DNA of 64,000 nucleotides, taken from contig NZ_AP012325.1 in NCBI RefSeq assembly GCF_001025195.1, positions 620,001-684,000 of the forward strand. Reading direction: 5' to 3'. The notes beneath the pieces are model-generated. The model saw only the letters and a program-made list of their open reading frames with translations, was not told the DNA's origin and made no database searches. Made by a program: the position numbers and the translations under genes. Within the stretch, counting starts at the first letter, position 1. Every line of letters begins with the position of its first letter. Positions 29,174-35,335 of the stretch are shown one piece after another. The stretch comes from Bifidobacterium catenulatum DSM 16992 = JCM 1194 = LMG 11043. GTDB taxonomy: Bacteria; Actinomycetota; Actinomycetes; Actinomycetales; Bifidobacteriaceae.

Positions 29174-30214
29174 ATGCAGAAGGTCAAAGCGTTTGGTGAT
29201 TGGCTCACCAAGTGGTTCACCGCGATTGTGATTGTGTGGGCTGTGTTCAACTATTTCGTGCCGCAGGCAAGCTTGTGGGGCAAATCCTATACCGGTTATT
29301 TCCTAGGTATCGTGCTGTTCGGCATGGGTCTTACCTTGACCCTTGACGATTTCAAGCGCATTCTCACCCAGCCTCTGATGGTCATCGTCGGTACAGTGGC
29401 CCACTTCGTCATCATGCCGTTGGTGGCTGTGCTGTTGTGCTGGATTTTCCGTCTTGATGGTGCGCTCGCCGTCGGTGTGATTCTGGTCGGCTGCTGCCCG
29501 TCCGGAACCTCGTCCAACGTGATGAGCTATCTGAGTCGTGGCGATGTGGCGCTGGACGTGTCCATCGGCATTTTGTCCACGCTGTGCGCGCCGTTCATGA
29601 TTCCGCTGTTGATGCAGTGGCTGGCCTCCCAGTATGTGTCGGTTCCGGTGGAATCCCTGTTCCTCAATGCGGTCAAGGTGGTGCTGTTCCCGATCGCTCT
29701 TGGCGTGATCTGCCATGCTATTTTCGGCGAGAAGATCGAGAAGATTACGGTCGCTCTGCCGATCGTGTCCCAAGTCGCCATCCTGCTTATCATCGGCGTG
29801 GTCGTCGCAGCTAACGGTCCGAAGCTGTTCGTGGCTTCCTCGCTGCTTGCCATCCCGGTGGTCATTTTGCACAACCTGTGTGGATACGCGCTGGGCTTCG
29901 GATTCTCCAAACTTATGTACAAGGTGTATCCGAAGGGCTTCCGTTATGCGCAGCAGAAAGCCATCACCTTCGAGGTCGGCATGCAGGATTCCGCGTTGGG
30001 GGCGACTTTGGCGCTGACGTCGTTCGCTTCCAATCCGTTGGCCGCGGTGCCGTCCACGTTCTTCAGCGTCTGGCACAACATTTCCGGCTCCGTGCTGTCC
30101 AGCTGGTGGCGTGAGCATGATGACAGGCATCAGATCCATCCTGATTCCGACAATGGAGAGAAGGGCTCGGCTGCGAAGGCCCGCGAAGACGCCGTCGAAA
30201 CAGCTAACAGCTGA
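29174..30214 (+). CDS. Bile acid:sodium symporter family (BASS) transporter
   Basis: 346-residue polytopic membrane protein with about nine or ten hydrophobic segments, the BASS fold. Characteristic features are YFLGIVLFGMGLTLTLDDFK in the first repeat, VGVILVGCCPSGTSSNVMSY (the crossing-helix ion/substrate motif), and AITFEVGMQDSALGATLA followed by ALTSFASNPLAAVPS in the second repeat. The hydrophilic C-terminal tail of about 35 residues is cytosolic. Family members move bile acids, pantoate, pyruvate or other organic anions with sodium, so the substrate is not fixed by sequence. Bile handling would suit a gut bacterium. ATG at 29174 is preferred over GTG 29156 because GGAAGAG precedes it. 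Confidence 0.87.
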   Translation: MQKVKAFGDWLTKWFTAIVIVWAVFNYFVPQASLWGKSYTGYFLGIVLFGMGLTLTLDDFKRILTQPLMVIVGTVAHFVIMPLVAVLLCWIFRLDGALAVGVILVGCCPSGTSSNVMSYLSRGDVALDVSIGILSTLCAPFMIPLLMQWLASQYVSVPVESLFLNAVKVVLFPIALGVICHAIFGEKIEKITVALPIVSQVAILLIIGVVVAANGPKLFVASSLLAIPVVILHNLCGYALGFGFSKLMYKVYPKGFRYAQQKAITFEVGMQDSALGATLALTSFASNPLAAVPSTFFSVWHNISGSVLSSWWREHDDRHQIHPDSDNGEKGSAAKAREDAVETANS

Positions 30215-30247
30215 CATTCGTCAGTAGAGTTCGTCGTCATATTGCGC

Positions 30248-30290
30248 ATTCCCTGAATCTTTCAAAACGATTCAGGGAATGTTTTGTTTT
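30248..30290 (+). terminator. Intrinsic terminator after the BASS gene
   Basis: ATTCCCTGAATC and GATTCAGGGAAT form a 12-bp stem followed by GTTTTGTTTT. Confidence 0.9.
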
Positions 30291-30418
30291 GAGTGGTGCA
30301 AACGTGTCATTGTGATGTTTTGTTGCTTTGTGCTGATGTAGGCAAAATGATTGAAATTATTGGGATTTAAGGGTGTTTTCACCCGTGTTTTTTGTTCGTT
30401 TTGGGGTATACTGTAATT

Positions 30419-30691
30419 GAAGGCCGGAGTTGTGGATCAGTCGAGAATTCGTCAGGTCGCAACGAAGCGTCTATGGCCGCAAGGTTCATGCGCAACGCCT
30501 TTAAGATATAACTGAACAATAGCGATTCGAGACGGCGGCGATGGGGTAGTACGGCGCAGGCGCCGGGCCGCAAATGCAAAACAGACAACGAGACTGAAAA
30601 GTGCGCGTAAGGTAGCGCGTAGCAAAGAAGTGGGAATCTCCTTCCCGAGTGGGTGGCCCCGGATTCAAAAGGATTCGGGGCCACTCCTTTT
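30419..30691 (+). ncRNA. Candidate structured non-coding RNA upstream of the str operon
   Basis: The 744 bases between the BASS gene and rpsL hold no credible protein gene. TATACT at 30407-30412 could start a transcript near 30419. It would end at a strong hairpin (GTGGCCCCGGATTC against GATTCGGGGCCAC, 30653-30684) followed by TCCTTTT. Inside are several local stems, for example GGGAA-N5-TTCCC near 30632-30646 and the CG-rich GGCGC-A-GGCGCC near 30563. A second promoter for rpsL lies after the terminator, so this would be a separate RNA of about 270 bases or an attenuated leader. It lacks the signatures I know for tmRNA, RNase P RNA and SRP RNA. No function is assigned. Confidence 0.4.
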
Positions 30692-30711
30692 GCGATTTGC
30701 GACACGGCATG

Positions 30712-30738
30712 TTGGAATGTCTTGGGAATCCGTATACT
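30712..30738 (+). promoter_or_regulatory. Promoter of the str operon and its structured leader
   Basis: TATACT at 30733-30738 with a poor -35 (TTGGAA, 15-base spacer) just past the terminator at 30691. The resulting leader of about 210 bases carries a strong hairpin (CCAAC, GCATGCCT pairing with AGGCGTGC, GTTGG; about 30754-30790). It may control ribosomal protein synthesis. Confidence 0.45.
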
Positions 30739-30958
30739 AGTAATTCGTGTGTGCCAACGGCATGCCTTATGTGACAGGCGTGCGGGTTGGGATATCCCGG
30801 AACTCGATTGCATCACGCGCAGCAATGCGGCGGTGAGAGAGGGATGGGCCATCGGGCCGGTGGACTGTGGCTATCTTCATGATTCAGATGCGTGGAGTGT
30901 GGGTGCAGTGCGGCGGTCACACAAAAGCAAGAGAAACCACTGAATCGGAGAATTCAAG

Positions 30959-31330
30959 TTGCCTACTATTGAACAGCTCGTCCGTAAGGGACGTCAGGCA
31001 AAGCCGAAGAAGTCCAAGACTTTGGCACTGAAGGGAAGCCCGCTGCGCCGCGGCGTGTGCACCCGTGTTTACACCACCACCCCGAGGAAGCCGAACTCGG
31101 CACTGCGTAAGGTCGCTCGTGTGCGTCTGAGCTCCGGTGTGGAAGTCACCGCTTATATCCCGGGCGAGGGCCACAACCTGCAGGAGCACTCCATTGTGCT
31201 CGTGCGCGGCGGCCGTGTCAAGGATCTGCCGGGTGTTCGTTACCACATCGTTCGTGGCGCCCTCGATACCCAGGGTGTGAAGGATCGCAAGCAGGGTCGT
31301 TCCCTGTACGGAGCAAAGAAGGCGAAGTAA
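30959..31330 (+). CDS. rpsL: Ribosomal protein S12 with Arg at position 43
   Basis: 123-residue S12 of the 30S decoding centre. [19 protein letters not shown] and [13 protein letters not shown] are the two loops near the A site. The position that is Lys in most bacteria (K43 counting Met; K42 in E. coli) is Arg, encoded AGG at 31085-31087. Lys88 in [11 protein letters not shown] is unchanged. K43R is the classical high-level streptomycin-resistance substitution. TTG at 30959 after GGAGAA is the start. It is the first gene of rpsL-rpsG-fusA-tuf, and the downstream genes follow closely. Confidence 0.97.
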
Positions 31331-31335
31331 GAGAT

Positions 31336-31806
31336 ATGTCACGTAAAGGACCTTCCAAGAAGCATCAGCTGCTGCCGGATCCGATTTACGGTTCCACTGT
31401 TGTGGCACAGCTCATCAACAAGATTCTGCTCGACGGCAAGAAGTCGATCGCCGAAGACATCGTCTACTCCGCTCTCGATATGGTCAAGGAAAAGACCGAT
31501 CAGGAGCCGGTGGCAGTGCTTAAGCGCGCTCTCGACAACATCCGTCCGTCCCTCGAGGTTCGCTCCCGCCGCGTCGGTGGCGCTACCTACCAGGTTCCGG
31601 TCGAAGTGAAGCCGGCTCGTGCGAACACCCTGTCCCTGCGCTGGCTGACCGACTTCTCCCGCGCCCGTCGTGAGAAGACCATGGCTGAGCGTCTGGCCAA
31701 CGAAATCCTCGATGCCTCCAATGGCCTTGGTGCTTCTGTCAAGCGTCGCGAGGATACTCATAAGATGGCAGAGGCCAACAAGGCCTTCGCTCATTACCGC
31801 TGGTAA
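31336..31806 (+). CDS. rpsG: Ribosomal protein S7
   Basis: 156-residue S7, primary binder of the 3' domain of 16S rRNA, lining the E site. [20 protein letters not shown] is the usual actinobacterial N-terminus. [18 protein letters not shown] is the RNA-binding beta-hairpin, and NKAFAHYRW ends the protein. The start lies only five bases after the rpsL stop with a weak ribosome site, so translational coupling to rpsL is likely. Confidence 0.98.
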
Positions 31807-31836: not shown

Positions 31837-33966
31837 ATGGCACTAGACGTGCTCAATGATCTCAACCAGATCCGTAACATCGGCATCATGGCTCACATCG
31901 ATGCCGGTAAGACCACTACCACCGAACGTATCCTGTACTACACCGGCAAGAACTACAAGATCGGCGAGACCCATGACGGTGCCTCGACGATGGACTTCAT
32001 GGCTCAGGAGCAGGAACGCGGCATCACCATCCAGTCCGCTGCAACCACTTGCTTCTGGAACCGTCAGACCCATGACGAGAAGCAGAAGTTCCAGATCAAC
32101 ATCATCGATACCCCGGGCCACGTGGACTTCACGGCCGAGGTGGAGCGCTCCCTGCGCGTGCTCGATGGTGCCGTTGCCGTGTTCGACGGCAAGGAAGGTG
32201 TGGAGCCGCAGTCCGAGACCGTTTGGCGTCAGGCTGACAAGTACGGCGTTCCGCGTATCTGCTTCATCAACAAGATGGATAAGCTCGGCGCTGACTTCTA
32301 CTACTCCGTCGACACCATCAAAACCAAGCTTGGCGCGACCCCGCTTGTCGTGCAGCTGCCGATCGGCGCTGAGAACGACTTCGCCGGCGTTGTCGATCTG
32401 ATTCGTATGAAGGCTTACGTCTGGAACGACGTTTCCGGCGACATGGGCGCTCACTACGACACCACCGACATCCCGGCCGACTTGCAGGACAAGGCTGAGC
32501 AGTATCGTGCAGAGCTGATCGACCAGGTCGCAGAGTCCGACGAAGAGCTGCTTGAGAAGTATCTCGAATCCGGTGAACTGACTGAGGACGAGATTCGTAG
32601 CGGCATCCGTAAGCTCACCATCAACCGTGAAGCCTACCCGGTGCTCTGCGGCTCCGCCTTCAAGGACAAGGGTGTTCAGCCGATGCTGGACGCCGTTGTC
32701 GACTACCTGCCAAGCCCGGAGGACGTTCCGTCCATCGTCGGTTTCGATCCGAAGGACGAATCCATCGAGATCGATCGTAAGCCGACCACCGATGATCCGT
32801 TCTCTGCCCTGGTCTTCAAGATCTCTACCCACCCGTTCTACGGCAAGCTCGTGTTCGTGCGCGTCTACTCCGGCGCCGTCACCCCGGGCGACACCGTGCT
32901 TGACTCCACCAAGGGCAAGAAGGAACGCGTCGGTAAGATCTTCCAGATGCACGCTGACAAGGAAAACCCGGTCGATGCTGCCGAAGCCGGCAACATCTAC
33001 ACCTTCGTGGGCCTGAAGAACATCACCACCGGTGACACCCTGTGCGACGAAAAGGCTCCGATCTCCCTCGAATCCATGACCTTCCCGGATCCGGTGATCG
33101 AGGTGGCCGTGGAGCCGAAGACCAAGGCCGATCAGGAGAAGATGAGCATCGCTTTGGCGAAGCTGTCCGACGAAGATCCGACCTTCCAGGTGAAGACCGA
33201 CGAAGAGTCCGGCCAGACCCTGATCTCCGGCATGGGCGAGCTGCAGCTCGACATCATCGTCGACCGTATGCGTCGTGAATTCAAGGTGGAGTGCAACGTG
33301 GGTAACCCGCAGGTTGCATACCGCGAGACGATCCGCAAGGCCGTCATGAACCAGGAATACACGCACAAGAAGCAGACCGGTGGTTCCGGCCAGTTCGCAA
33401 AGGTCTTGATGAACTTCGAGCCGCTCAACACCGAAGAAGGCGAGACCTACGAGTTCGTCAACGAGGTCACCGGCGGCCACATCACCAAGGAATTCATTCC
33501 TTCCATCGATGCTGGTGTGCAGGAAGCCATGGAATCCGGCGTGCTCGCCGGCTTCCCGGTGGTTGGCGTCAAGGCTACCGTCACCGACGGCCAGGTCCAC
33601 GACGTCGATTCCTCCGAAATGGCCTTCAAGATCGCAGGTTCCATGTGCTTCAAGGAAGCTGCTCCGAAGGCCAAGCCGGTCATCCTCGAGCCGATCATGG
33701 CCGTGGAAGTGCGTACTCCGGAAGAGTACATGGGCGACGTGATGGGCGATATCAACGCCCGTCGTGGTTCCATCCAGTCCATGACCGACTCCACCGGTGT
33801 CAAGGTCATCGACGCCAAGGTTCCGCTGTCCGAGATGTTCGGCTACATCGGCGACCTTCGCTCTAAGACCCAGGGCCGCGCAATGTTCACCATGCAGATG
33901 GACTCCTACGCTGAGGTTCCGAAGAACGTCTCCGAGGAGATCATCAAGGCCCAGCGCGGCGAGTGA
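31837..33966 (+). CDS. fusA: Elongation factor G
   Basis: 709-residue translocase GTPase. The G domain has [15 protein letters not shown] (P-loop), the switch I threonine within [21 protein letters not shown] and [10 protein letters not shown]. Domains II-V follow, with [14 protein letters not shown] in domain IV and [18 protein letters not shown] near the C-terminus. ATG at 31837 follows AAGGAAC. It lies 30 bases after rpsG in the str operon. No substitution typical of fusidic-acid resistance was sought systematically. Confidence 0.98.

Positions 33967-34135: not shown

Positions 34136-35335
<1,200 letters not shown>

What the first reader, a model, noticed from the sequence alone, without database searches (positions are those of the whole stretch)
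31085..31087. S12 carries Arg at position 43, the classical streptomycin-resistance substitution
The rpsL codon at 31085-31087 is AGG (Arg) in [13 protein letters not shown]. In nearly all bacteria, including most bifidobacteria I know of, this is Lys (AAG), so a single A-to-G change explains it. K43R (K42R in E. coli numbering) is a known high-level streptomycin-resistance mutation that has also been reported in bifidobacterial strains. AGG is also out of character, since other Arg codons in this gene are mostly CGT/CGC. Chromosomal, non-transferable resistance is predicted.
Basis: partly seen in the sequence, partly recalled or inferred. Interest (0 to 1): 0.75.

Follow-up and report, generated by a model that had tools for sequence, protein, structure and literature searches.

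The report
Streptomycin-resistance mutation in a bifidobacterium's ribosome
This human gut bifidobacterium carries a well-known single-base change in a ribosomal protein that in other bacteria blocks the antibiotic streptomycin; its nearest sequenced relatives lack it, so it is most likely a genuine but ordinary acquired resistance mutation.

Summary
rpsL (30959-31330, TTG start) encodes S12 with Arg43 (AGG, 31085-31087). In the genus, 109 of 112 genomes carry Lys here and 2 carry Arg: this genome and a distant congener, G018. One 74%-complete genome shows neither. The same-species genome G019 has AAG; the two rpsL genes differ at 4 of 372 bases and only codon 43 changes the protein. A tree with codon 43 masked puts G000 with G019 and G018 elsewhere, so two independent A-to-G changes are likely. 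The same base change accompanies MIC 512 versus 16 µg/mL in two B. infantis strains (PMC8879182); K42R gives high-level, non-restrictive resistance in mycobacteria (PMC2916820). rpsL is single copy; rsmG and 16S rRNA look intact. No MIC for it was found. One correction: Arg43 is not by itself a mutant sign, since it also occurs in other lineages such as Paenibacillus and Wolbachia, where it looks natural. Real, apparently strain-level, of a known kind; low interest.

The parts
30959..31330 (+). rpsL, ribosomal protein S12 (uS12), 123 aa, TTG start
   Evidence: ORF; PF00164 E 9.7e-40; PDB S12 matches; only PF00164 match in the genome
31085..31087 (+). codon 43, AGG = Arg43 (Lys42 site in E. coli numbering without Met, numbering recalled)
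   Evidence: AAG in same-species genome G019
31086..31086 (+). the substituted base, A to G relative to relatives
   Evidence: codon 43 is AAG in G019 and G001; same base as rpsL position 128 in PMC8879182
31336..31806 (+). rpsG, ribosomal protein S7 (neighbour)
   Evidence: PF00177 E 2.9e-64
31837..33966 (+). fusA, elongation factor G (neighbour)
   Evidence: Pfam EF-G domains
34136..35335 (+). tuf, elongation factor Tu (neighbour)
   Evidence: Pfam EF-Tu domains

Best explanation
The strain carries an acquired rpsL K43R point mutation. In wild-type ribosomes Lys42/43 of S12 makes two hydrogen bonds to streptomycin and a salt bridge to A913 of 16S rRNA. Arg keeps the salt bridge but loses the drug contacts, so the drug binds poorly while translation stays nearly normal. 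The strain is therefore predicted to have high-level streptomycin resistance (hundreds of µg/mL) with little fitness cost, and no added resistance to 2-deoxystreptamine aminoglycosides from this change. Shown here: the residue, its derived state against the genomes compared, its rarity in the genus, single copy. From the literature: mechanism and effect in other organisms. Inferred: the phenotype of this strain, and past streptomycin exposure as the selecting force.
For: Arg43 AGG read directly. Same-species genome G019 has Lys43, with 4 of 372 bases different and one amino-acid change in S12. Lys in 109 of 112 genus genomes, Arg in 2. Of 37 sampled genomes of the same order or class outside the genus, 0 match the Arg pattern, 33 the Lys pattern and 4 neither. 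Masked tree of 32 loci: G000 with G019 (support 0.983), G018 with L010 (1.0), so the two Arg cases look independent. The identical context ccccgaGgaagcc is reported for resistant B. breve Yakult and B. infantis ATCC 15697 (MIC 512) against ccccgaAgaagcc in sensitive LMG 11588 (MIC 16) (PMC8879182, passages and tables). K43R is named the most likely cause of resistance in B. bifidum VA07-1AN (PMC7178285, passages). Mechanism and non-restrictive phenotype: PMC2916820, passages. Codons 43 and 88 are the two dominant rpsL resistance sites in a survey covering 37 bacteria (PMC7265455, passages).
Against: No MIC for this strain was found (searches; several listed papers not opened). No second assembly was available to exclude a base error. 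Only one other genome of the species was compared. Arg43 occurs in other lineages, so Arg alone does not prove drug selection. Bifidobacteria have partial intrinsic aminoglycoside resistance: PMC3855789 calls all six tested strains, none of them B. catenulatum, highly resistant by disc (streptomycin zones 13-30 mm), shows that two B. breve genes contribute to it, and lists a phosphotransferase-family protein (PF01636) in B. catenulatum DSM 16992. So a raised MIC would not be due to S12 with certainty. PMC2916820 itself notes an E. coli report in which K42R changed paromomycin resistance of a 16S mutant.
Confidence: 0.88

Rival explanations
1. Arg43 is a natural variant typical of this subspecies, not a resistance mutation picked up by this strain.
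For: Arg43 occurs in unrelated lineages, 34 of 116 scanned stretches with CGT. Only one other genome of the species was compared (G019), and by its size and single contig that one is probably subsp. kashiwanohense (recalled).
Against: Same-species G019 and the next relatives G001 and L029 have AAG. The change is the minimal one-step AAG to AGG in a gene whose other 14 Arg codons are CGT or CGC, which points to a young change. In one paper B. catenulatum isolates had low streptomycin MICs, 1-30 µg/mL by medium (PMC10484311, table passage), though it also calls two unnamed strains streptomycin resistant and reports conflicting results.
Confidence: 0.07
2. A sequencing or assembly error at 31086.
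For: No reads or second assembly could be examined here.
Against: One-contig genome, 99.94% complete. A random error falling on exactly the classic resistance base and giving the classic residue is unlikely. The same codon is seen in G018.
Confidence: 0.03
3. The Arg43 allele came in by recombination of rpsL from another resistant bifidobacterium.
For: The only other Arg genome of the 112 has the same AGG codon and the same 29 bases around it.
Against: Block by block, G000 is about as far from G018 as G019 is, and the masked tree separates them. The same 29-base context with AAG is found in 4 of the 30 Lys loci held.
Confidence: 0.02

Closest known systems
rpsL K43R in Bifidobacterium breve Yakult and B. 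longum subsp. infantis ATCC 15697
   Same: Same codon, same A-to-G base, same local context ccccgaGgaagcc, chromosomal (PMC8879182, passages)
   Different: Different species; resistance measured there, not here; ATCC 15697 rpsL lies among transposases, none found among the eight nearby genes scanned here
rpsL K43R in Bifidobacterium bifidum VA07-1AN
   Same: Same substitution, proposed as the cause of streptomycin resistance (PMC7178285, passages)
   Different: Different species and source (vaginal isolate)
rpsL K42R / K43R of Mycobacterium and E. coli
   Same: Same residue, high-level resistance, non-restrictive (PMC2916820, passages)
   Different: Different organisms; phenotype measured there only
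Arg43 S12 of Paenibacillus, Saccharibacillus, Wolbachia, Ehrlichia and candidate-phylum bacteria
   Same: Arg in the same S12 position
   Different: Recurs across species of a lineage, often with CGT; looks fixed, not a strain-level change (inference)

Membership tests
rpsL K43R streptomycin-resistance mutation | Gene is true S12 and residue aligns with Lys43 (Lys42 without Met) | tested here: met
   full-length alignment to a PDB S12 with Lys opposite Arg43
rpsL K43R streptomycin-resistance mutation | Residue is Arg through a single AAG to AGG change | tested here: met
   AGG here, AAG in G019 and G001
rpsL K43R streptomycin-resistance mutation | Derived relative to close relatives | tested here: met
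   Lys in 109 of 112 genus genomes including the one same-species genome
rpsL K43R streptomycin-resistance mutation | No wild-type rpsL copy that would mask the change | tested here: met
   one PF00164 match in the genome
rpsL K43R streptomycin-resistance mutation | High streptomycin MIC | not testable with these tools
   No MIC for the strain found in the searches
Other streptomycin-resistance routes (rsmG loss, 16S rRNA changes) | Broken rsmG or altered 530 loop / 912 region | tested here: not met
   rsmG frame open, 273 codons, not compared with relatives for missense changes; five identical 16S genes with the usual 530-loop and 912-region letters ('usual' is recalled)
Streptomycin-modifying enzymes (APH(6), ANT(3'')-like) | Gene present in the genome | tested here: inconclusive
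   no APH_6 match, control weak (1 of 14 genomes, none over cut-off); no AadA_C match, no control rang; general APH family PF01636 not searched, and PMC3855789 lists a PF01636 protein in B. catenulatum DSM 16992

The most novel reading that the evidence does not exclude
Because Arg43 keeps ribosome function, streptomycin resistance of this kind may be nearly cost-free and persist unseen in type and reference strains of gut bifidobacteria. The same residue looks fixed in several bacterial lineages, which would then be intrinsically streptomycin resistant through S12 alone. JCM 1194T, listed as reference strain of its species in a table of PMC10092070, would be an example of a resistant reference strain.
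Probability: 0.3. Interest if true: 0.3.

Novelty: new member of a known kind. Interest (0 to 1): 0.13.

Why it matters
It matters mainly for strain safety files and for choice of reference strains. If the identification and the prediction hold, the type strain of a common human gut species is streptomycin resistant by a chromosomal point mutation, and should not be used to set the wild-type susceptibility of its species. It also adds another case of the same base change arising separately in bifidobacteria.

Tried and rejected
Recombination from G018 was tested and disfavoured. rsmG loss and 16S changes were checked and not seen. Two enzyme families were searched with no match, but the controls were weak or silent, so that is inconclusive. 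I asked whether the strain looks like a laboratory multi-resistant line through rpoB: the rifampicin region has Asn at the His526 place (E. coli numbering and the resistance link are recalled), but the Asn pattern matches 112 of 112 genus genomes and the His pattern 0 of 112. It is a genus trait and no sign of selection in this strain.

Scripts with faults: one search failed to find rpsL in 16 of 32 loci, which lay on the other strand, and one search missed the 912 region because the search pattern was too strict; both were redone. No Rfam family reached its threshold in 30000-31400. The paper search gave nothing useful.

A report of K43R in B. catenulatum was not found in searches, in an open-licence library only, and not every listed paper was opened. 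Both papers that hold 'Bifidobacterium catenulatum', 'streptomycin' and 'rpsL' were looked into by passages and do not report it there. Kiwaki and Sato 2009 and Xiao 2010 were not seen; I know them here through PMC8879182.

Full report
What is there. The window lies at 620001-684000 of a 2,079,525-base one-contig genome, 99.94% complete. Size and single contig fit Bifidobacterium catenulatum JCM 1194T (2.08 Mb, one contig, in the strain table of PMC10187079, passages seen). The exact length of that strain's genome I only recall, so the name is likely but not proved by a call. The ORF at 30959-31330 with a TTG start is S12, followed by rpsG, fusA and tuf, the order of the ordinary str operon (recalled). 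Codon 43 is AGG, Arg, at 31085-31087. The other 14 Arg codons in the gene are CGT (10) or CGC (4). Lys88, the other common resistance site, is unchanged (read from the translation).

Is it unusual? In the genus, a pattern for Arg at this codon matches 2 of 112 genomes, this one and G018. A pattern for Lys matches 109 of 112. The one genome with neither, G094, is 74% complete. The same-species genome G019 has AAG. In 396 genomes sampled from the phylum the Arg pattern matches 11, including this one, and the Lys pattern 337; 48 match neither, some perhaps through incompleteness and some through other letters around the codon. Of the 37 genomes of the same order or class outside the genus, 0 match Arg, 33 Lys and 4 neither.

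Derived and probably recent. rpsL of this genome differs from that of G019 at 4 of 372 bases, and the only amino-acid difference is residue 43. From G001 it differs at 10 bases, again with only residue 43 changed. Of 32 genus loci compared, 2 have AGG; the 30 others, which were fetched by the Lys pattern, have AAG (29) or AAA (1). A tree of rpsL and most of rpsG with codon 43 masked groups G000 with G019 (support 0.983) and G018 with L010 (support 1.0); several deeper nodes are weakly supported. Block-by-block identity gives no sign of a tract shared by G000 and G018. Two separate A-to-G changes are the simplest account.

Effect. PMC8879182 (passages and tables seen) reports the same base change, in the same sequence context, in resistant B. 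breve Yakult and in B. infantis ATCC 15697 (MIC 512 µg/mL), against A in the sensitive LMG 11588 (MIC 16; EFSA cut-off 128). [quoted passage not shown] bifidum VA07-1AN. PMC2916820 (passages) states that K42R gives high-level resistance, breaks the hydrogen bonds to streptomycin, keeps the salt bridge to A913 and is non-restrictive, and finds no change in 2-deoxystreptamine susceptibility in M. smegmatis; it notes a partly different E. coli report for paromomycin. No MIC for JCM 1194T was found (searches; not every listed paper was opened).

What speaks on the baseline. PMC10484311 (passages and part of the results section) lists streptomycin MICs of 1-30 µg/mL, by medium, for two B. catenulatum columns; the same paper calls two unnamed strains streptomycin resistant by E-test and reports conflicting results, so it is weak evidence. 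PMC3855789 (passages and section 15) calls all six bifidobacteria it tested highly resistant to aminoglycosides by disc; B. catenulatum was not among them. It shows that two B. breve genes contribute to aminoglycoside resistance and lists a PF01636 protein in B. catenulatum DSM 16992. Partial intrinsic resistance through such genes could therefore add to, or be confused with, the effect of S12.

Other routes in this genome. rpsL is single copy. rsmG is an open frame of 273 codons; I did not compare it with relatives for missense changes. All five 16S genes are identical and carry the usual 530-loop and 912-region letters ('usual' is recalled). APH(6) was not found, with a weak control. The AadA_C search was silent also in its controls and says nothing. 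No transposase family appears among the eight genes scanned between 27688 and 36543, unlike the situation described for B. infantis ATCC 15697.

Arg43 is not by itself a mutant sign. Of the 80 with a title shown, 12 are Paenibacillus, 4 Saccharibacillus, 3 Wolbachia and 1 Ehrlichia. Of the 116, 34 use CGT, which cannot be reached from a Lys codon in one step. That these are long-fixed natural residues is my inference; no strains or drug tests were compared. The case for a resistance mutation here therefore rests on the comparison with relatives, which is strong. A useful contrast is RpoB: Asn at the His526 place, a rifampicin-resistance change elsewhere (recalled), matches in 112 of 112 genus genomes and His in 0 of 112, so that residue is a genus trait while Arg43 is not.

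A note on use. PMC10092070 (passages) lists JCM 1194 as the chosen reference strain of B. catenulatum in its Table 2, although its text counts DSM 16992T, the same strain by PMC6210967, among type strains that represent their species less well.

Verdict. The finding is real and the reading is supported. It is a known mutation in a further bifidobacterial strain. Interest is low; what remains is a MIC, a resequencing check and a look at sister strains.

Noticed in passing
G000:C1:1640417-1640442 (outside the window), locus L166: RpoB has Asn at the E. coli His526 place (numbering recalled), where changes give rifampicin resistance; the Asn pattern matches 112 of 112 genus genomes and His 0 of 112, so it is a genus-wide residue.
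   Followed up: yes
L034-L149 (genome contigs): Arg at S12 position 43 in 115 of 116 scanned stretches, among them Paenibacillus, Saccharibacillus, Wolbachia, Ehrlichia and candidate-phylum bacteria; some of these lineages may be intrinsically streptomycin resistant.
   Followed up: partly
L002:1501-1529 (G018): A second, distant Bifidobacterium genome carries the same AGG codon, apparently by an independent change.
   Followed up: yes
L150, rsmG: RsmG has a Gly/Arg/Asn-rich insert of about 46 residues that splits the Pfam match into two pieces.
   Followed up: no
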